64,000 nucleotides of DNA from Pseudomonas sp. ML2-2023-3 (GTDB lineage Bacteria > Pseudomonadota > Gammaproteobacteria > Pseudomonadales > Pseudomonadaceae), in contig NZ_CP146343.1 in NCBI RefSeq assembly GCF_037055275.1, forward strand, positions 1,460,501 through 1,524,500, written 5' to 3'. The notes under the pieces are model-generated. The model had not been told where the DNA came from and ran no database searches. It was given only the letters and a program-made list of their open reading frames with translations. The position numbers and the translations under genes were made by a program. The number at the start of each line of letters is the position of its first letter. The stretch's first letter is position 1. Of this stretch, positions 8,512 to 14,724 are shown piece by piece.

Positions 8512-9879
8512 ATGGCCAAGCCCAAGCGCATTTACGGCTGCACAGAGTGCGGCGCAACCTTTCCCAAGTGGGCAGGGCAGTGCGGCGAGTGCGGCGTCTG
8601 GAACACCCTGGTCGAGACCATTGTAGAAAGCGGCGGCGCCGCGCCGCCCAGTGGCCGTACCGGCTGGACAGGGCAACAGGCCCAGATCAAAACCCTGGCC
8701 GAAGTCAGCATTGCAGAAATCCCGCGCTTCTCCACCGCTTCCGGTGAGCTGGATCGGGTGCTCGGGGGCGGTCTGGTCGATGGTTCGGTGGTGTTGATCG
8801 GCGGTGACCCGGGTATCGGCAAGTCCACTATCTTGCTGCAAACCTTGTGTCAGATGGCTACGCGCATGCCTGCGCTGTATGTCACTGGCGAAGAGTCCCA
8901 GCAGCAAGTGGCCATGCGCGCCCGACGCCTGGGGCTGCCCCAGGATCAGCTCAAGGTGATGACCGAAACCTGTATCGAAAACATCATCGCCACCGCCAAG
9001 CTCGAAAAACCCAAGGTCATGGTGATCGACTCAATCCAGACCATCTTCACCGAGCAACTGCAGTCGGCGCCGGGCGGTGTGTCCCAGGTGCGAGAAAGTG
9101 CGGCATTGCTGGTGCGTTATGCCAAGTCGAGCGGCACGGCCATTTTCCTGGTGGGCCACGTGACCAAAGAGGGTGCGCTGGCCGGACCGCGGGTGCTGGA
9201 GCATATGGTCGACACCGTGCTGTATTTCGAGGGTGAGTCTGACGGTCGCTTGCGTCTGTTGCGCGCAGTGAAAAATCGGTTTGGCGCGGTCAACGAGCTG
9301 GGTGTGTTCGGCATGACCGACAAAGGCCTGAAAGAAGTCTCCAACCCGTCAGCTATTTTTCTTACCCGTGCTCAGGAAGAAGTGCCGGGCAGCGTCGTCA
9401 TGGCCACCTGGGAGGGCACCCGTCCCATGCTGGTGGAAGTGCAGGCACTGGTGGACGACAGCCATATGTCCAACCCGCGCCGTGTGACCCTGGGTCTGGA
9501 TCAGAATCGACTGGCCATGCTGCTGGCTGTCCTGCATCGCCACGGCGGTATTCCCACTCATGATCAGGATGTATTCCTTAACGTGGTGGGCGGGGTCAAG
9601 GTGCTGGAAACCGCGTCCGACCTGGCGCTGATGGCGGCGGTGATGTCCAGTCTGCGCAATCGACCGCTGCCCCATGATCTGCTGGTGTTTGGTGAGGTTG
9701 GCTTGTCCGGCGAAGTGCGCCCGGTACCCAGCGGTCAGGAGCGGCTTAAAGAAGCGGCCAAGCACGGTTTCAAGCGTGCCATCGTGCCCAAGGGCAACGC
9801 CCCCAAAGAGTCTCCGCCGGGCTTGAAGGTCATCGGTGTGACCCGCCTTGAGCAGGCACTGGATGCGTTGTTTGAATAG
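8512..9879 (+). CDS. radA: DNA repair protein RadA
   Basis: A 455-residue RecA-like branch-migration helicase that helps process recombination intermediates. In order: a C4 zinc finger (C10, C13, C24, C27), Walker A GDPGIGKST beginning at residue 98, the RadA-specific K254NRFG motif, and a C-terminal Lon-protease-like domain without a catalytic dyad. Length is standard. The ATG at 8512 follows TGGAGTT. It is divergent from mscL and followed by an independent promoter for fic. Confidence 0.97.
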   Translation: MAKPKRIYGCTECGATFPKWAGQCGECGVWNTLVETIVESGGAAPPSGRTGWTGQQAQIKTLAEVSIAEIPRFSTASGELDRVLGGGLVDGSVVLIGGDPGIGKSTILLQTLCQMATRMPALYVTGEESQQQVAMRARRLGLPQDQLKVMTETCIENIIATAKLEKPKVMVIDSIQTIFTEQLQSAPGGVSQVRESAALLVRYAKSSGTAIFLVGHVTKEGALAGPRVLEHMVDTVLYFEGESDGRLRLLRAVKNRFGAVNELGVFGMTDKGLKEVSNPSAIFLTRAQEEVPGSVVMATWEGTRPMLVEVQALVDDSHMSNPRRVTLGLDQNRLAMLLAVLHRHGGIPTHDQDVFLNVVGGVKVLETASDLALMAAVMSSLRNRPLPHDLLVFGEVGLSGEVRPVPSGQERLKEAAKHGFKRAIVPKGNAPKESPPGLKVIGVTRLEQALDALFE

Positions 9880-9948
9880 GGTTTCATATCTGTAAAAAAA
9901 TCTGCAATAGTCAGGTTTTTAGTTGTCTGTTAATGTCGGTTTTGGCCT

Positions 9949-9976
9949 GTATTTATAGGCTTTAGTCTATAAATAC
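9949..9976. promoter_or_regulatory. Perfect inverted repeat in the fic promoter (putative operator)
   Basis: GTATTTATAG at 9949-9958 is the exact reverse complement of CTATAAATAC at 9967-9976, with 8 bases between. It lies 32 bases ahead of the fic start codon in an AT-rich spacer, so a bound protein could overlap the promoter. A near-repeat AAATCTGCAA occurs on both sides (about 9898 and 9989). The binding factor is unknown; the winged-helix-like end of the Fic protein itself is one candidate. Confidence 0.7.
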
Positions 9977-10008
9977 GATGTGCTAATAAATCTGCAAAAG
10001 AGTCCGCC

Positions 10009-11205
10009 ATGACTGAGCTTTACGACACCGTTAGCTGGCTTGAACCTCTGTTATTCGACCCGATTCCGGCTGATATGGTCGAGATGGCGGATCAGATGCT
10101 GACATTAAAAGGCCGCCTTGAAGGTCTTTACCCTGGCGAGACCGCTGAACGTATTGGTCAACTGTTACAGCTGACCAACAGCTTTTATTCGAACCTTATC
10201 GAAGGGCAGTACACCGAGCCCAAGGTGATAGAGCAAAAGGCTCGTATCAAGCGCTCAGCCAAGCAGTTGACTGAAATCGCAACTTCCCATGTCCATGTTC
10301 AGCGAGCACTTGAGCGAATCATTGACAGGGACGGTGGTCCAGACTGGCGGAATCTGTTTTCGGTGAGTTTTGTTTCCCTTGTTCATCGCGGACTCTTTCG
10401 TGATGCGAGTGAGCAAGAACTTCGGATCCAGGGTCTGGATACACCCATGGTGCCCGGACAACTCAGAGATATTGCCCAACTCAACGTCTCGGTCGGTCAG
10501 CACGATGCGCCTGCTTATCAAGCTATACGTCTCATGCTTGAGCGGATGCAAGTCGTTTATGGGCGGGTTGCAGATCCGCGTTATCGCTTGATTGCAGCAC
10601 TGGGCTATCACCATCGTCTGGCTTGGGTTCAACCTTTTCCAGATGGCAATGGTCGGGTGGTGAGGATGATCACTCATCTGCAGTTATTGAAGCTGGGACT
10701 CGCGTCACCGTTATGGTCTTTATCCAGAGGGTTGGCCCGTAATCATGAGGCCTATTACCAGCATTTGGCCATGGCGGATCAACATCGTCAGGGCGATCTG
10801 GACGGCCGTGGGCAATTGTCCTTGAAGGCCTTGCAAGCATTTGTGCGCTTTATGCTGCGCACTTGTATCGACCAAATGACCTATATGCTGGACGCACTGG
10901 ATCGCGATGCACTGCGTTCTCGTCTTGAGCGTGCCGTGGTCTTCGATGAACGTTTTATCGCTGCGGGCATCAAGCCAGAAACCGCCCGCGCACTGCATAT
11001 CCTTATTACCCAGGGCGCGGTGCTGCGTAACGACTTCAAGGTCTATATGGGCTTGGGTGAAAGAACGGCAATCAACCAGTTGAAACTGTTGGTGCACTTG
11101 GGTGTGGTAGACAGCCCCTCACCAAAGTCGCGGCTTATCCATCCGGGGTTTCCGGTGTGGTTTGCGCAACTTGTATTCCCTGATTTACATAAGCGGTTTA
11201 TCTGA
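10009..11205 (+). CDS. Class II Fic-fold protein with Gln in place of the catalytic His
   Basis: A 398-residue Fic-family protein. Fic enzymes usually transfer AMP to target Ser, Thr or Tyr residues using the motif HPFx(D/E)GNGRxxR. Here the motif reads Q208-PFPDGNGRVVR219, so the catalytic His is Gln (codon CAA at 10630-10632), while the ATP-binding Asn, Gly and both Arg are kept. An N-terminal inhibitory helix motif of the S/T-xxx-E-G type is present as S61-NLI-E65-G66. The last 90 residues look like a winged helix (ITQGAVLRNDFKVYMGL..AINQLKLLVHLGVV). The gene stands alone behind its own palindromic promoter. Either it is inactive for AMPylation and acts as a regulator, or it uses other chemistry. 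Confidence 0.85.
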   Translation: MTELYDTVSWLEPLLFDPIPADMVEMADQMLTLKGRLEGLYPGETAERIGQLLQLTNSFYSNLIEGQYTEPKVIEQKARIKRSAKQLTEIATSHVHVQRALERIIDRDGGPDWRNLFSVSFVSLVHRGLFRDASEQELRIQGLDTPMVPGQLRDIAQLNVSVGQHDAPAYQAIRLMLERMQVVYGRVADPRYRLIAALGYHHRLAWVQPFPDGNGRVVRMITHLQLLKLGLASPLWSLSRGLARNHEAYYQHLAMADQHRQGDLDGRGQLSLKALQAFVRFMLRTCIDQMTYMLDALDRDALRSRLERAVVFDERFIAAGIKPETARALHILITQGAVLRNDFKVYMGLGERTAINQLKLLVHLGVVDSPSPKSRLIHPGFPVWFAQLVFPDLHKRFI

Positions 11206-11234
11206 GCGTCAGGCAAGACAAACCCACAAAAGAA

Positions 11235-11271
11235 GGCTCTAGACCAACGTTAGGGGCTGGTCTTTAGAGCC
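11235..11271 (+). terminator. Hairpin between fic and cstA
   Basis: GGCTCTAGACCA pairs with TGGTCTTTAGAGCC (one bulge) around a 10-base loop. No T-run follows, so it is either a weak terminator for fic or a structured part of the cstA leader. Confidence 0.4.
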
Positions 11272-11326
11272 AAGAGCGCTAAACTCCGGGGGCAGTCTTT
11301 CTTGTCCAACTGGCCGGAATTAAAAA

Positions 11327-13393
11327 ATGAATAATAAAAATAGCCTGCTACGCCACATTCCGTGGCTGGTGCTGGCAATTGTAGGAGCCTGCGCCCTTGG
11401 CGTAGTTGCGTTACGCCGGGGCGAGGCGATCAACGCCTTGTGGATCGTAGTGGCAGCGGTTGCCATTTATCTGGTTGCTTACCGTTATTACAGCCTGTTT
11501 ATTGCCACCAAGGTGATGCAGCTCGACCCCAGTCGCGCTACGCCTGCAGTGCTCAACAACGATGGTCTGGACTATGTGCCGACCAACAAGCACATTCTTT
11601 TTGGTCACCACTTCGCCGCCATCGCTGGCGCCGGACCGTTGGTGGGGCCGGTTTTGGCCGCGCAAATGGGCTATCTGCCGGGCACGCTCTGGCTGATCGC
11701 CGGTGTTGTTCTGGCCGGTGCGGTGCAGGACTTCATGGTCCTGTTCATGTCCACTCGCCGCAACGGTCGCTCTTTGGGCGACATGGTGCGTGAGGAAATG
11801 GGCAAGATCCCGGGCACCATCGCGCTGTTTGGTTGCTTCCTGATCATGATCATCATCCTGGCGGTGCTGGCGCTGATCGTGGTCAAGGCCCTGGCCGAAA
11901 GCCCGTGGGGCATGTTCACCGTGATGGCGACCATCCCGATTGCGATGTTCATGGGCATTTACATGCGCTACATCCGCCCGGGCCGCATCGGTGAGATCTC
12001 CATTGTCGGTGTGCTGCTGTTGCTCGGCTCGATCTGGCTGGGGGGCCAGATTGCGGCAAGCCCTGAATGGGCTCCGGTGTTTACCTTCACCGGTACGCAG
12101 ATCACCTGGATGCTGATCGGTTATGGTTTTGTTGCAGCCGTGCTGCCGGTTTGGCTGGTTCTGGCACCGCGTGACTACCTGTCGACCTTCCTTAAAATCG
12201 GCACCATCGTGGCACTGGCCATCGGCATTCTGGTCACCATGCCTGAGCTGAAAATGCCAGCATTGACCCAGTTTACCGACGGTACTGGCCCAGTCTGGAA
12301 AGGCGGTCTGTTCCCGTTCCTGTTCATCACCATTGCCTGCGGTGCGGTATCGGGTTTCCACGCACTGATTTCTTCGGGTACTACACCCAAGTTGCTGGAT
12401 AACGAATGCAACTCCCGGTACATCGGCTACGGCGCGATGTTGATGGAGTCCTTCGTGGCCATCATGGCCATGGTTGCCGCTTCGGTCATCGAGCCGGGCG
12501 TGTACTTCGCCATGAACAGCCCGGCGGCCATCGTCGGCGGTGATGTGGTGACTGTTGCGCAAACCGTTAGCAGCTGGGGCTTTGCAATTACCCCGGATGC
12601 ACTGACCGCACTGGCCAAGGATATTGGTGAAACCACCGTTCTGGCCCGTGCCGGCGGCGCACCGACACTGGCTGTGGGTATCGCTCAGATCCTGCATAAC
12701 GTGTTGCCGGGCGAAAACACAATGGCGTTCTGGTATCACTTCGCCATTTTGTTTGAAGCCCTGTTTATCTTGACGGCGGTTGACGCCGGTACCCGTGCCG
12801 GTCGCTTTATGCTGCAAGACTTGCTGGGCAGCTTTGTGCCTGCACTCAAGCGCACCGAGTCCTGGGGCGCCAACATGCTGGCAACAGGCCTTTGTGTAGC
12901 GATGTGGGGTTACCTGCTTTATCAGGGCGTGATCGATCCATTGGGCGGCATCAACACCCTGTGGCCGCTGTTCGGTATCTCTAACCAGATGCTGGCGGGT
13001 ATCGCGCTGATGCTGGCAACCGTTGTGCTGATCAAAATGAAGCGTCAACGCTACATTTGGGTGACCATGCTGCCAGCGATCTGGCTGCTGATCTGCACCA
13101 CCGTTGCAGGTTTTATCAAGCTGTTCGACGCCAACCCTGCGGTCGGCTTCCTGGCCCTGGCCAACAAGTACAGCACTGCGCTGGAAGCGGGCCAAGTCAT
13201 TGCCCCGGCGAAAAACATCGACCAGATGCAGCACGTGATCATCAACGCCTACACCAACGCCGGTCTGACCGTGCTGTTCCTGTTCGTGGTGTTCAGCATT
13301 CTGTTCTTTGCGATCAAGGTGGGCGTGGCAGCATGGGGCAGTAAAGTACGTACGGATAAAGAGTCGCCGTACCAAGTCATGCCGGATGCATAA
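11327..13393 (+). CDS. cstA: Carbon starvation protein CstA / BtsT-type pyruvate or peptide transporter
   Basis: A 688-residue membrane protein with about 16-18 helices, covering the CstA domain with the early NDGLDYVPTNKHILFGHHFAAIAGAGPLVGP region and GTTPKLLDNE in mid-protein. The family includes E. coli CstA (peptide uptake) and BtsT/YjiY (pyruvate uptake). The following yjiX and yjiA genes give the same order as the E. coli btsT operon, which favours a pyruvate or small-carboxylate role; the substrate is not settled by sequence. The start codon is embedded in A-rich sequence with AATAATAA at codons 2-4, a possible Hfq/Crc target. Confidence 0.92.
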   Translation: MNNKNSLLRHIPWLVLAIVGACALGVVALRRGEAINALWIVVAAVAIYLVAYRYYSLFIATKVMQLDPSRATPAVLNNDGLDYVPTNKHILFGHHFAAIAGAGPLVGPVLAAQMGYLPGTLWLIAGVVLAGAVQDFMVLFMSTRRNGRSLGDMVREEMGKIPGTIALFGCFLIMIIILAVLALIVVKALAESPWGMFTVMATIPIAMFMGIYMRYIRPGRIGEISIVGVLLLLGSIWLGGQIAASPEWAPVFTFTGTQITWMLIGYGFVAAVLPVWLVLAPRDYLSTFLKIGTIVALAIGILVTMPELKMPALTQFTDGTGPVWKGGLFPFLFITIACGAVSGFHALISSGTTPKLLDNECNSRYIGYGAMLMESFVAIMAMVAASVIEPGVYFAMNSPAAIVGGDVVTVAQTVSSWGFAITPDALTALAKDIGETTVLARAGGAPTLAVGIAQILHNVLPGENTMAFWYHFAILFEALFILTAVDAGTRAGRFMLQDLLGSFVPALKRTESWGANMLATGLCVAMWGYLLYQGVIDPLGGINTLWPLFGISNQMLAGIALMLATVVLIKMKRQRYIWVTMLPAIWLLICTTVAGFIKLFDANPAVGFLALANKYSTALEAGQVIAPAKNIDQMQHVIINAYTNAGLTVLFLFVVFSILFFAIKVGVAAWGSKVRTDKESPYQVMPDA
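11330..11337 (+). promoter_or_regulatory. Possible Hfq/Crc catabolite-activity motif at the cstA start
   Basis: AATAATAA matches the AAnAAnAA motif bound by Hfq with Crc in Pseudomonas carbon catabolite repression and directly follows the start codon. CstA-type genes are expected to be shut down on preferred carbon sources. The motif is short, so chance occurrence is possible. Confidence 0.45.
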
Positions 13394-13408
13394 CAGAGGG
13401 TTGCAATC

Positions 13409-13606
13409 ATGTTCAATGACCTGAGTCGCCTCGGTAAATACCTCGGTCAGGCCGCGCGCCTGATGGTCGGCATGCCCGACTACGACAACTACGTCGAGCA
13501 TATGCAAACCAAGCACCCGGACAAGCCTGTCATGAGCTACGAGGCGTTCTTCCGCGAACGCCAGGAAGCCCGTTACGGCGGCAAGGGTGGGCCCAAGTGC
13601 TGCTAG
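13409..13606 (+). CDS. yjiX: YbdD/YjiX family small protein
   Basis: A 65-residue DUF466 protein (YbdD/YjiX) with the typical [20 protein letters not shown] core and a C-terminal GGKGGPKCC. It always follows cstA or btsT in proteobacteria, and here it starts 15 bases after cstA. Members are thought to be needed for activity of the paired transporter, but the mechanism is not established. No membrane segment is visible. Confidence 0.93.
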
Positions 13607-13632
13607 CCCCTCAGGGCTAAGTTGCATCTGAC

Positions 13633-13727
13633 TGTGGGAGCGGGCTTGCTCGCGATGAGTGCTCTGCGGTGTATCCGTTACACCGCGCTGCTTGAGTCGC
13701 GGGCAAGCACGCTCCCACTTTTTTTTG
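13633..13727. repeat. REP pair (TGTGGGAGC family) with T-run
   Basis: TGTGGGAGCGGGCTTGCTCG (13633) and its inverse ending GCTCCCAC (13718) flank a loop of about 40 bases, followed by a run of T. It lies between yjiX and yjiA and may end the cstA-yjiX transcript. Confidence 0.85.
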
Positions 13728-13749
13728 CGTCATTTCAAGGAGACTGTGC

Positions 13750-14724
13750 ATGTCCTCTCCAATCCCCGTCACCATCCTCAGTGGCTTTTTGGGTGCCGGT
13801 AAAACCACCTTGTTGCGTTACCTGCTCAAGGCCGAACATGGCCTGAAAATCGCCGTGATCGAGAACGAATTCAGCGATGCCGGGATCGATACCCAGTTGT
13901 TGGGTGATGAGCCCGTGCAAGTCATGACACTGGCCAATGGCTGTGTGTGCTGCACCATTCACACCGACCTGACCAAGGCGCTGTACCTGCTGCTGGAGCG
14001 TCTGGACAGTGGCGAAATAGCGTTCGACCGCCTGGTGATCGAATGCACCGGCCTGGCCGACCCGGCACCGGTGGCGCAAACCTTTTTCATAGACGAAGAA
14101 CTGCGCGAGCGTTACCTGCTGGACGGCATCATCACCCTGGTGGACGCCGCGCACGCCGATGTACACCTGAGCCAAACCATCGCCCAGGCACAAATCGGTT
14201 TTGCTGACCGCCTGTTGGTGAGCAAGCGCGACCTGGTGGATGACGCCACCTTTGATGCCTTAAGCGAACGCTTGACCCGTATCAACCGCCGGGCGCCGAT
14301 TCGTGTGGTTGAGCACGGCAAGATAGATCTGGCCGAGTTGCTGGATGTCCGAGGGTTCAATCTCAATGCAGACTTGGGCGGTGGCCTGAATTTGCGTCCG
14401 GTGCAGCCTGCGTCATCTATCGACCGCATCTCAAGCCTTGTGCTGCGCACCGAAACACCGCTGGATATCGACAGCCTCAGCGCGTTCATGAACGAACTGC
14501 TGGAAGATCACGGCAAGCAATTGCTGCGTTACAAAGGCGTGCTGAGCATTGCCGGTGAAGATCGACGGCTGGTGTTTCAGGGCGTGCTCAAGCTCTATGG
14601 CTTCGACTGGGACACTGAGTGGGCGGAGGGTGAGGTGCGCGACAGCGTGATGGTATTTATTGCCGATGACTTGCCTGAAGCCAAGATTCGCGAGGGGTTT
14701 GATGTTCTAGCCTCACGAAAATAG
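13750..14724 (+). CDS. yjiA: G3E-family GTPase YjiA (CobW/COG0523)
   Basis: A 324-residue metal-binding GTPase of the G3E family. Walker A is G12-FLGAGKTT, the COG0523 metal motif C65-VCC68 lies in LANGCVCCTIH, the Walker B-like ECTGLADPAPV follows, and the base-specific motif is SKRD. A C-terminal CobW_C domain (about 225-315) closes the protein. YjiA-type proteins bind zinc, nickel or cobalt and may insert metal into partners. It is third in the cstA-yjiX-yjiA group, but a REP element and its own ribosome binding site AAGGAGA set it apart. Confidence 0.92.
   Translation: MSSPIPVTILSGFLGAGKTTLLRYLLKAEHGLKIAVIENEFSDAGIDTQLLGDEPVQVMTLANGCVCCTIHTDLTKALYLLLERLDSGEIAFDRLVIECTGLADPAPVAQTFFIDEELRERYLLDGIITLVDAAHADVHLSQTIAQAQIGFADRLLVSKRDLVDDATFDALSERLTRINRRAPIRVVEHGKIDLAELLDVRGFNLNADLGGGLNLRPVQPASSIDRISSLVLRTETPLDIDSLSAFMNELLEDHGKQLLRYKGVLSIAGEDRRLVFQGVLKLYGFDWDTEWAEGEVRDSVMVFIADDLPEAKIREGFDVLASRK

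What the first reader, a model, noticed from the sequence alone, without database searches (positions are those of the whole stretch)
10009..11205. Fic protein with catalytic His replaced by Gln
The Fic motif reads QPFPDGNGRVVR (Q208) where active Fic proteins have HPFx(D/E)GNGRxxR. Every other motif residue and the N-terminal inhibitory helix motif (S61...E65-G66) are kept, so the protein is not simply decaying. It may be an AMPylation-dead regulator, a sensor of ATP, or an enzyme with altered chemistry. One base (CAC to CAA) separates the two states, so it could be a recent change.
Basis: partly seen in the sequence, partly recalled or inferred. Interest (0 to 1): 0.7.

Follow-up and report, generated by a model that had tools for sequence, protein, structure and literature searches.

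The report
Dead Fic enzyme, intact self-regulator
A Pseudomonas protein built to attach AMP to other proteins has lost its key catalytic residue in this lineage, yet it keeps a DNA-reading domain that matches repeats in front of its own gene, so it probably lives on as a regulator of itself.

Summary
In detail: the 398-aa Fic protein at 10009-11205 has Gln (CAA, 10630-10632) where active Fic enzymes have the catalytic His. It is not conserved: of 231 other relatives listed by two searches, 229 have His, one Tyr, one Arg; the closest, P. psychrophila (97% identical), has His. By analogy with His-to-Ala mutants of other Fic enzymes, the protein should neither add nor remove AMP.

Residues about 320-380 form a winged helix. 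In front of this gene and of its relatives stand two tandem half-site repeats about 90 bp apart (best spacing 88-92 bp in 32 of 43 promoters, 20 of 219 flanking controls). In the 32 loci scored, recognition-helix residue 355 matches the majority base 3 of the half-site (Ile/T, Thr/C, Ser/G), better than any other column. The protein therefore most likely reads its own promoter, as shown for the Fic-HTH protein CccR, whose His mutant still represses. The window allele keeps this domain and all four half-sites unchanged from P. psychrophila. Binding is inferred, not measured; a very young random loss would look similar.

The parts
10009..11205 (+). Fic-winged-helix protein, 398 aa
10189..10206 (+). 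inhibitory motif S61-NLI-E65-G66 (class II, N-terminal)
   Evidence: E65 in 226 of 226 and S61 in 223 of 226 sequences that cover it
10630..10665 (+). Fic motif QPFPDGNGRVVR, residues 208-219
   Evidence: P209, D212-R216 and R219 invariant in 232 sequences, F210 in 229 of 232
10630..10632 (+). codon CAA = Q208 in place of the catalytic His
   Evidence: His in 229 of 231 other sequences
10966..11145 (+). C-terminal winged helix-turn-helix, about residues 320-379
   Evidence: model helices 325-335, 340-347, 351-364 and strand 376-379, block pLDDT 94-97; MarR_2 matches at 321-374 in relatives P0053 and P0077, both below the Pfam cut-off (22.9 and 23.6 against 27 bits) and none in P0001; covered by the 7XUX alignment
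11071..11073 (+). codon of I355, fifth residue of the recognition helix 351-364; matches base 3 of the operator half-site
9889..9906 (+). distal tandem operator TCTGTA-N6-TCTGCA (half-sites 9889-9894, 9901-9906)
   Evidence: no difference from P. psychrophila here; with a pattern written from this and the proximal copy, no other genome site has fewer than 2 mismatches
9979..9996 (+). proximal tandem operator TGTGCT-N6-TCTGCA (half-sites 9979-9984, 9991-9996), 90 bp from the distal one; its first half-site is the weakest of the four
   Evidence: it misses the strict pattern by one base
9949..9976 (+). perfect inverted repeat GTATTTATAG-N8-CTATAAATAC between the two operators; role unclear (promoter part or further operator)
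   Evidence: 10-bp arms in 3 of 1000 shuffles; same in L003, 9-bp arms in L004, not in the 23 other upstream stretches tested there; one place in the genome at up to 3 mismatches

Best explanation
The gene encodes a class II Fic protein with a C-terminal winged helix. (1) Shown by sequence: catalytic His replaced by Gln in this lineage, the rest of the motif kept. (2) Inferred from tested His-to-Ala mutants of other Fic enzymes: it can no longer activate the target hydroxyl (AMPylation) or protonate the leaving group (deAMPylation), while the ATP-binding loop stays. (3) Shown by comparison: genes of this family carry two tandem half-site repeats about 90 bp apart upstream, and recognition-helix residue 355 matches operator base 3. 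(4) Inferred: the protein binds those repeats through its winged helix and controls its own transcription, most likely as a repressor. (5) Inferred: the window allele keeps (4) without (2), that is, a recently inactivated AMP-transferase that is still an autoregulator.
For: Q208 absent from relatives: 229 of 231 have His; sister species has His at 97% protein identity in the same radA-fic-cstA order. Operators: best spacing 88-92 bp in 32 of 43 promoters versus 20 of 219 flanks; 27 of 43 scores above the best control. Code: I/T 13, T/C 16, S/G 3, none off, in the 32 in-phase loci; normalised mutual information 1.000, next column 0.561; leave-one-clade-out 8 of 9 clades, next best column 6.5; both traits need 4 changes on the tree. 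Genome: only these two places match the tandem with fewer than 2 mismatches. Winged helix with 355 in helix 351-364; fold closest to CccR, an autorepressor; a strain making its H192A mutant still repressed the cccR promoter reporter in recipient cells, one making a form without the HTH did not (PMC9755527, section 10 part 1). Catalysis: in FICD the His is called the essential general base of AMPylation and its loss eradicates deAMPylation (PMC8373988 passages); Campylobacter Fic2 and Fic3 lose their toxic effect without it (PMC5651007 passages). All 11 residue differences from P. psychrophila lie at or before 284.
Against: No binding or activity was measured. The independent-pairs test has only 3 supported contrasts (all 3 agree; p 0.25; fewer than 6 cannot reach 0.05). 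The 43 promoters include close kin (42 different core sequences). Of the 43, 11 were not scored for the code; read afterwards by eye, L006, L009, L015, L020, L028, L107 and L114 fit more or less well, L007 is ambiguous, and L115-L117 have a fourth residue, Arg. Single half-sites are less clean than majorities: Ser goes with G 6, A 3, C 3. Sequence kept after a recent mutation needs no selection, and dN/dS is higher to P. psychrophila (0.109) than over the deeper comparisons (0.031-0.039). Residual activity is possible: an in silico survey notes that His-to-Ala in IbpA did not abolish AMPylation fully (PMC4454073 passage).
Confidence: 0.66

Rival explanations
1. Plain loss of function: a random, very recent point mutation in a dispensable accessory gene; nothing in the protein is now under selection and it will decay.
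For: Found in one lineage. Accessory gene: 0 of the 29 best-matching radA loci fetched from other genomes show it within 1.5 kb; 33 of 398 genomes of the genus, own included, have a relative at E<=1e-60. In the census of 259 genomes, 3 of the 6 non-His sites kept lie in broken genes. A second change on this branch hits a fairly conserved residue (P175L).
Against: dN/dS to P. psychrophila is 0.109, still low; winged helix and operator half-sites unchanged. These do not exclude a mutation too young to show relaxation.
Confidence: 0.25
2. Gln takes part in a changed chemistry (weaker AMPylation, another nucleotide, or hydrolysis).
For: A Doc clade with His replaced by Gln, 45 sequences, was described and argued not to be dead (PMC4454073 passages).
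Against: Gln is not conserved in this family: one sequence of 232, with Tyr and Arg as the other exceptions; the rest of the motif is unchanged.
Confidence: 0.04
3. Sequencing or assembly error at one base.
For: Single base, single assembly, no reads on hand.
Against: The assembly has 4 contigs and 100% completeness; the frame is intact; His losses to Tyr and Arg exist in other records of the family.
Confidence: 0.05

Closest known systems
CccR of Yersinia pseudotuberculosis (PDB 7XUX; PMC9755527: abstract, section 9, section 10 part 1)
   Different: His kept in CccR; its operator is an inverted repeat with a 26-bp spacer, here two direct tandem repeats 90 bp apart; T6SS secretion of CccR not tested here; 20% identity.
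CbFic2 of Coxiella burnetii (PDB 8CIL; PMC10628234: abstract and passages)
   Same: Fic plus C-terminal winged helix; DNA binding proposed to switch it between AMPylation and deAMPylation.
SoFic of Shewanella oneidensis (PDB 3EQX, 3ZCN)
   Different: DNA binding not shown (statement in PMC10628234); P0001 scores 27.5 bits against a cut-off of 550 for the SoFic model.
Doc clade D2 with His-to-Gln (PMC4454073: passages)
   Same: Gln at the catalytic position.
   Different: Motif Qx[FY]x[DE][GV]NKR, usually single-domain, shared by a clade of 45; here NGR, with a winged helix, in one lineage.
BepC and other non-canonical Bartonella Bep Fic domains (PMC8401265: passages; PMC7842913: search listing only)
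   Same: Fic scaffold with a function but no AMP transfer found (BepC); the catalytic His is present in about 75% of 99 Beps.
   Different: Host-targeted effectors with a BID domain; no winged helix in the passages read; BepC itself is described there with a His.

Membership tests
Fic/Fido domain (PF02661) | Pfam profile above the curated cut-off; Fic fold | tested here: met
Active Fic AMP-transferase | catalytic His in HPFx(D/E)GNGRxxR | tested here: not met
   Gln 208
Active Fic AMP-transferase | remaining motif residues for nucleotide and metal binding | tested here: met
   PFPDGNGRVVR kept
Class II Fic proteins | N-terminal (S/T)xxxE(G/N) inhibitory helix | tested here: met
   S61-NLI-E65-G66 by sequence; in the model residues 61-70 average pLDDT 49, so its place is unsure
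Fic-winged-helix autoregulators (CccR type) | C-terminal winged helix | tested here: met
   model and 7XUX match
Fic-winged-helix autoregulators (CccR type) | repeat operator at own promoter | tested here: met
   by comparison only
Fic-winged-helix autoregulators (CccR type) | measured DNA binding and repression | not testable with these tools
   -
CccR-type T6SS effector | secretion by T6SS and killing of neighbours | not tested
   no secretion gene was sought; no claim made
Doc clade D2 (His to Gln) | Qx[FY]x[DE][GV]NKR motif | tested here: not met
   QPFPDGNGR

The most novel reading that the evidence does not exclude
Loss of the catalytic His is repeated (Gln, Tyr, Arg in three members of this one family, all full length with the winged helix kept) and is favoured, because it turns an autoregulated AMP-transferase into a catalysis-free transcription factor or a dominant-negative partner that can bind target and DNA but not modify; the recognition code (residue 355 to operator base 3) keeps such alleles tied to their own promoter.
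Probability: 0.15. Interest if true: 0.72.

Novelty: new variant of a known kind. Interest (0 to 1): 0.48.

Why it matters
The Gln itself is a rare, lineage-bound loss of catalysis and on its own ordinary. What matters is the family-wide operator. The Fic plus winged-helix layout is said to be shared by a variety of bacterial Fic enzymes (PMC10628234, passage), but in the papers seen here binding to the own promoter is shown for CccR only. A two-part operator with 90-bp spacing and a one-residue, one-base recognition match makes DNA binding by this Fic family testable at once, and natural His-less alleles offer a clean separation of the enzymatic from the regulatory role.

Tried and rejected
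Conserved pseudoenzyme family: rejected, Q208 is one of 232. Whether other strains of the same species share it is open: the 97% representative P0002 stands for 31 member sequences that I could not see. Compensating residue: H201 and H202, 6-7 residues earlier, are old family residues (232 and 229 of 232), so no stand-in is indicated; geometry was not measured. Relaxed selection: polarised changes were 8 synonymous and 4 nonsynonymous for the window, 16 and 5 for P. psychrophila, with 11 unresolved, H208Q among them; too few to decide. The inverted repeat 9949-9976 as family operator: not in the 23 other upstream stretches. Sites elsewhere: 4 further genome places, each with 2 mismatches, not followed up. 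Of the ten non-His census hits, L098, L099, L100 and L103 were dropped as wrong-frame: short frames without a Fic sequence around the motif; only L098 was also tested by tblastn, no match. The 413 His sites were not checked one by one; the census covered only codons one step from His plus Gln. Broken copies are under-sampled among the 232, as the protein search takes 0.55-1.75 times the query length. (398 genomes) shows no preceding codon and is not used in counts. L110 gave no whole gene and was dropped from 44 loci. Print: natural loss of the Fic His was sought (24 papers, 20 listed; 3; 5,036 papers, 10 listed, mostly unrelated); only the works cited bear on it. Operators of Fic-HTH proteins: 80 papers, 20 listed; 10; 0; 5; 6; among listed titles and abstract starts only CccR and CbFic2 are on point; a review, PMC12894286, was not opened. 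Only open-licence papers are searched. Foldseek itself was not run.

Full report
What is there. The window carries an open frame at 10009-11205 (+), 398 codons, between radA (8512-9879) and a cstA-like gene (11327-13393) (the names of the flanking genes are my reading of the sequence). Pfam gives Fic only. Codon 10630-10632 is CAA, Gln 208; the motif is QPFPDGNGRVVR; the N-terminal inhibitory motif S61-NLI-E65-G66 is present.

Is Q208 conserved? No. Two protein searches, each listing the best 120 of about 3,000 hits, gave 231 distinct further sequences. Aligned together (232 with the window, six lacking the N-terminal motif) the column has 229 His, one Gln (window), one Tyr (P0018, P. helleri) and one Arg (P0105). 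P209, D212, G213, N214, G215, R216 and R219 are invariant. The nearest named genome, P. psychrophila DSM 17535 (L003), is 97% identical in the protein and about 94% in the longest shared DNA stretch, has the gene in the same place and has His; P. helleri DSM 29165 (L004) likewise has the gene there and His. In 119 sequences of the first search (window included, two fragments left out), position 208 is the only one of 125 columns conserved at 95% or more at which the window departs; P0018 departs nowhere else, P0105 at one other column.

How common is loss of the His? In 259 genomes of the genus, the DNA pattern for HPFx[DE]GN with His has 413 matches in 191 genomes (summed). The alternatives searched gave Gln 2, Asn/Asp/Tyr 1 and Arg/Leu/Pro 7, 10 in all. 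Four of these I dropped as wrong-frame matches. Of the six left, three sit in broken or fragmentary genes (L095, L102, L104) and three in long open frames: the window, L097 (199 aa, Tyr) and L101 (501 aa, Arg). So about 6 of 419 sites, half of them in wrecks.

Catalytic consequence. In FICD the Fic-motif His is described as the essential general base for AMPylation; its change to Ala removes deAMPylation and leaves a long-lived enzyme-substrate complex (PMC8373988, passages). CbFic2's authors state that His-to-Ala makes Fic enzymes inactive (PMC10628234, passage). In Campylobacter fetus, Fic2 is toxic despite a degenerate motif, but not without its His (PMC5651007, passages). Against this, a survey notes residual activity for a His-to-Ala mutant of IbpA and describes a Doc clade of 45 sequences with His replaced by Gln (PMC4454073, passages). 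The best inference is a protein that still binds nucleotide but neither adds nor removes AMP.

The operator. Upstream of the window gene and of its relatives there are two tandem copies of a half-site with period 12. The relatives' genes stand elsewhere: in G019, G022, G025 and G039, where both were mapped, fic is not beside radA. With the pattern T[CG]NGN[AG]-N6-T[CG]NGN[AGC], 28 of 31 promoters have at least one match and 23 at least two, against 9 and 4 of 166 flanking stretches, and 268 and 12 of 6200 shuffles; the window's proximal copy misses this pattern by one base, and its second match there is out of phase. A search that names no bases, scoring only agreement among four 6-mers, was run on 43 promoters (44 loci, one without a whole gene; loci added): the best spacing is 88-92 bp in 32 of 43 against 20 of 219 flanks, and 27 of 43 scores exceed the best control. 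In the window the half-sites are TCTGTA, TCTGCA (from 9889, 9901) and TGTGCT, TCTGCA (from 9979, 9991), all unchanged from P. psychrophila, while six other bases of the 129-base intergenic stretch differ. In the whole genome only these two places match the tandem with fewer than two mismatches, with a pattern written from them.

The recognition code. For the 32 promoters with in-phase sites, the majority base at half-site position 3 was compared with the protein columns; the phase was set from positions 1, 2 and 4, not 3. Residue 355 gives a one-to-one map: Ile with T (13), Thr with C (16), Ser with G (3); normalised mutual information 1.000, next column 0.561. Predicting each of nine clades from the others, column 355 gets eight (the Ser clade has no other member to learn from); the next best of 398 columns gets 6.5. 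Single half-sites are less clean: Ile T 51, C 1; Thr C 60, T 3, G 1; Ser G 6, A 3, C 3. On a tree of residues 1-290 both traits need four changes among these rows, but only three supported independent contrasts exist, all in agreement, which cannot reach significance by sign test. No such single column stands out for positions 2 and 5. Residue 355 is the fifth residue of the model's third helix, the one that reads the major groove in winged helices (general knowledge). The eleven loci left out were read by eye afterwards: seven fit more or less, one is ambiguous, and three alphaproteobacterial plasmid genes have Arg with TCGGC repeats.

Synthesis. The family is best read as autoregulated Fic-winged-helix proteins. 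In the window lineage one substitution removed the catalytic residue. All 11 residue differences from P. psychrophila lie at or before residue 284, although 11 of 44 base differences fall in codons 291-398, so the regulator half is unchanged at the protein level. This favours a surviving autoregulator, but a very young random loss would look much the same; dN/dS is 0.109 to P. psychrophila against 0.031-0.039 in the comparisons with P. helleri. The gene is accessory: 0 of 29 radA loci fetched from other genomes show it within 1.5 kb (22 of them also reach cstA).

Standing. As a Fic-domain protein: member. As an active AMP-transferase: the defining His was tested and not met. As a CccR-like autoregulator: architecture and operator met by comparison, binding not measured. 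Loss of the His is a known sort of event. The operator and the code were not among the papers listed, which cover open-licence papers only.

Noticed in passing
L001 (G000:C1:1929198-1929518, minus strand): The genome's second fic gene (350 aa, HPFADGNGR intact) has a perfect 13-bp inverted repeat TAAATAGGGTAAT-N52-ATTACCCTATTTA just upstream, perhaps another self-operator.
   Followed up: partly
9949-9976: Perfect 10-bp inverted repeat with 8-bp spacer between the two tandem operators; seen in the window, P. psychrophila and (9 bp) P. helleri, not in 23 other upstream stretches; one place in the genome.
   Followed up: partly
8512-14724: Synonymous divergence from P. psychrophila is lower in fic (0.12) than in radA (0.38), cstA (0.21) and the cobW-like gene (0.42), which hints at local recombination.
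   Followed up: no
P0018 and P0105: Two other full-length members have lost the catalytic His, to Tyr and Arg, with the rest of the motif and the C-terminal domain kept; P0105 has Gly at position 355.
   Followed up: partly
L115-L117 upstream regions: Alphaproteobacterial plasmid relatives (32-34% identical) have Arg at position 355 and repeats of TCGGC(A/C) upstream.
   Followed up: no
L097: A short FicT-type gene (199 aa) in another Pseudomonas with Tyr in place of the catalytic His in an intact frame.
   Followed up: no
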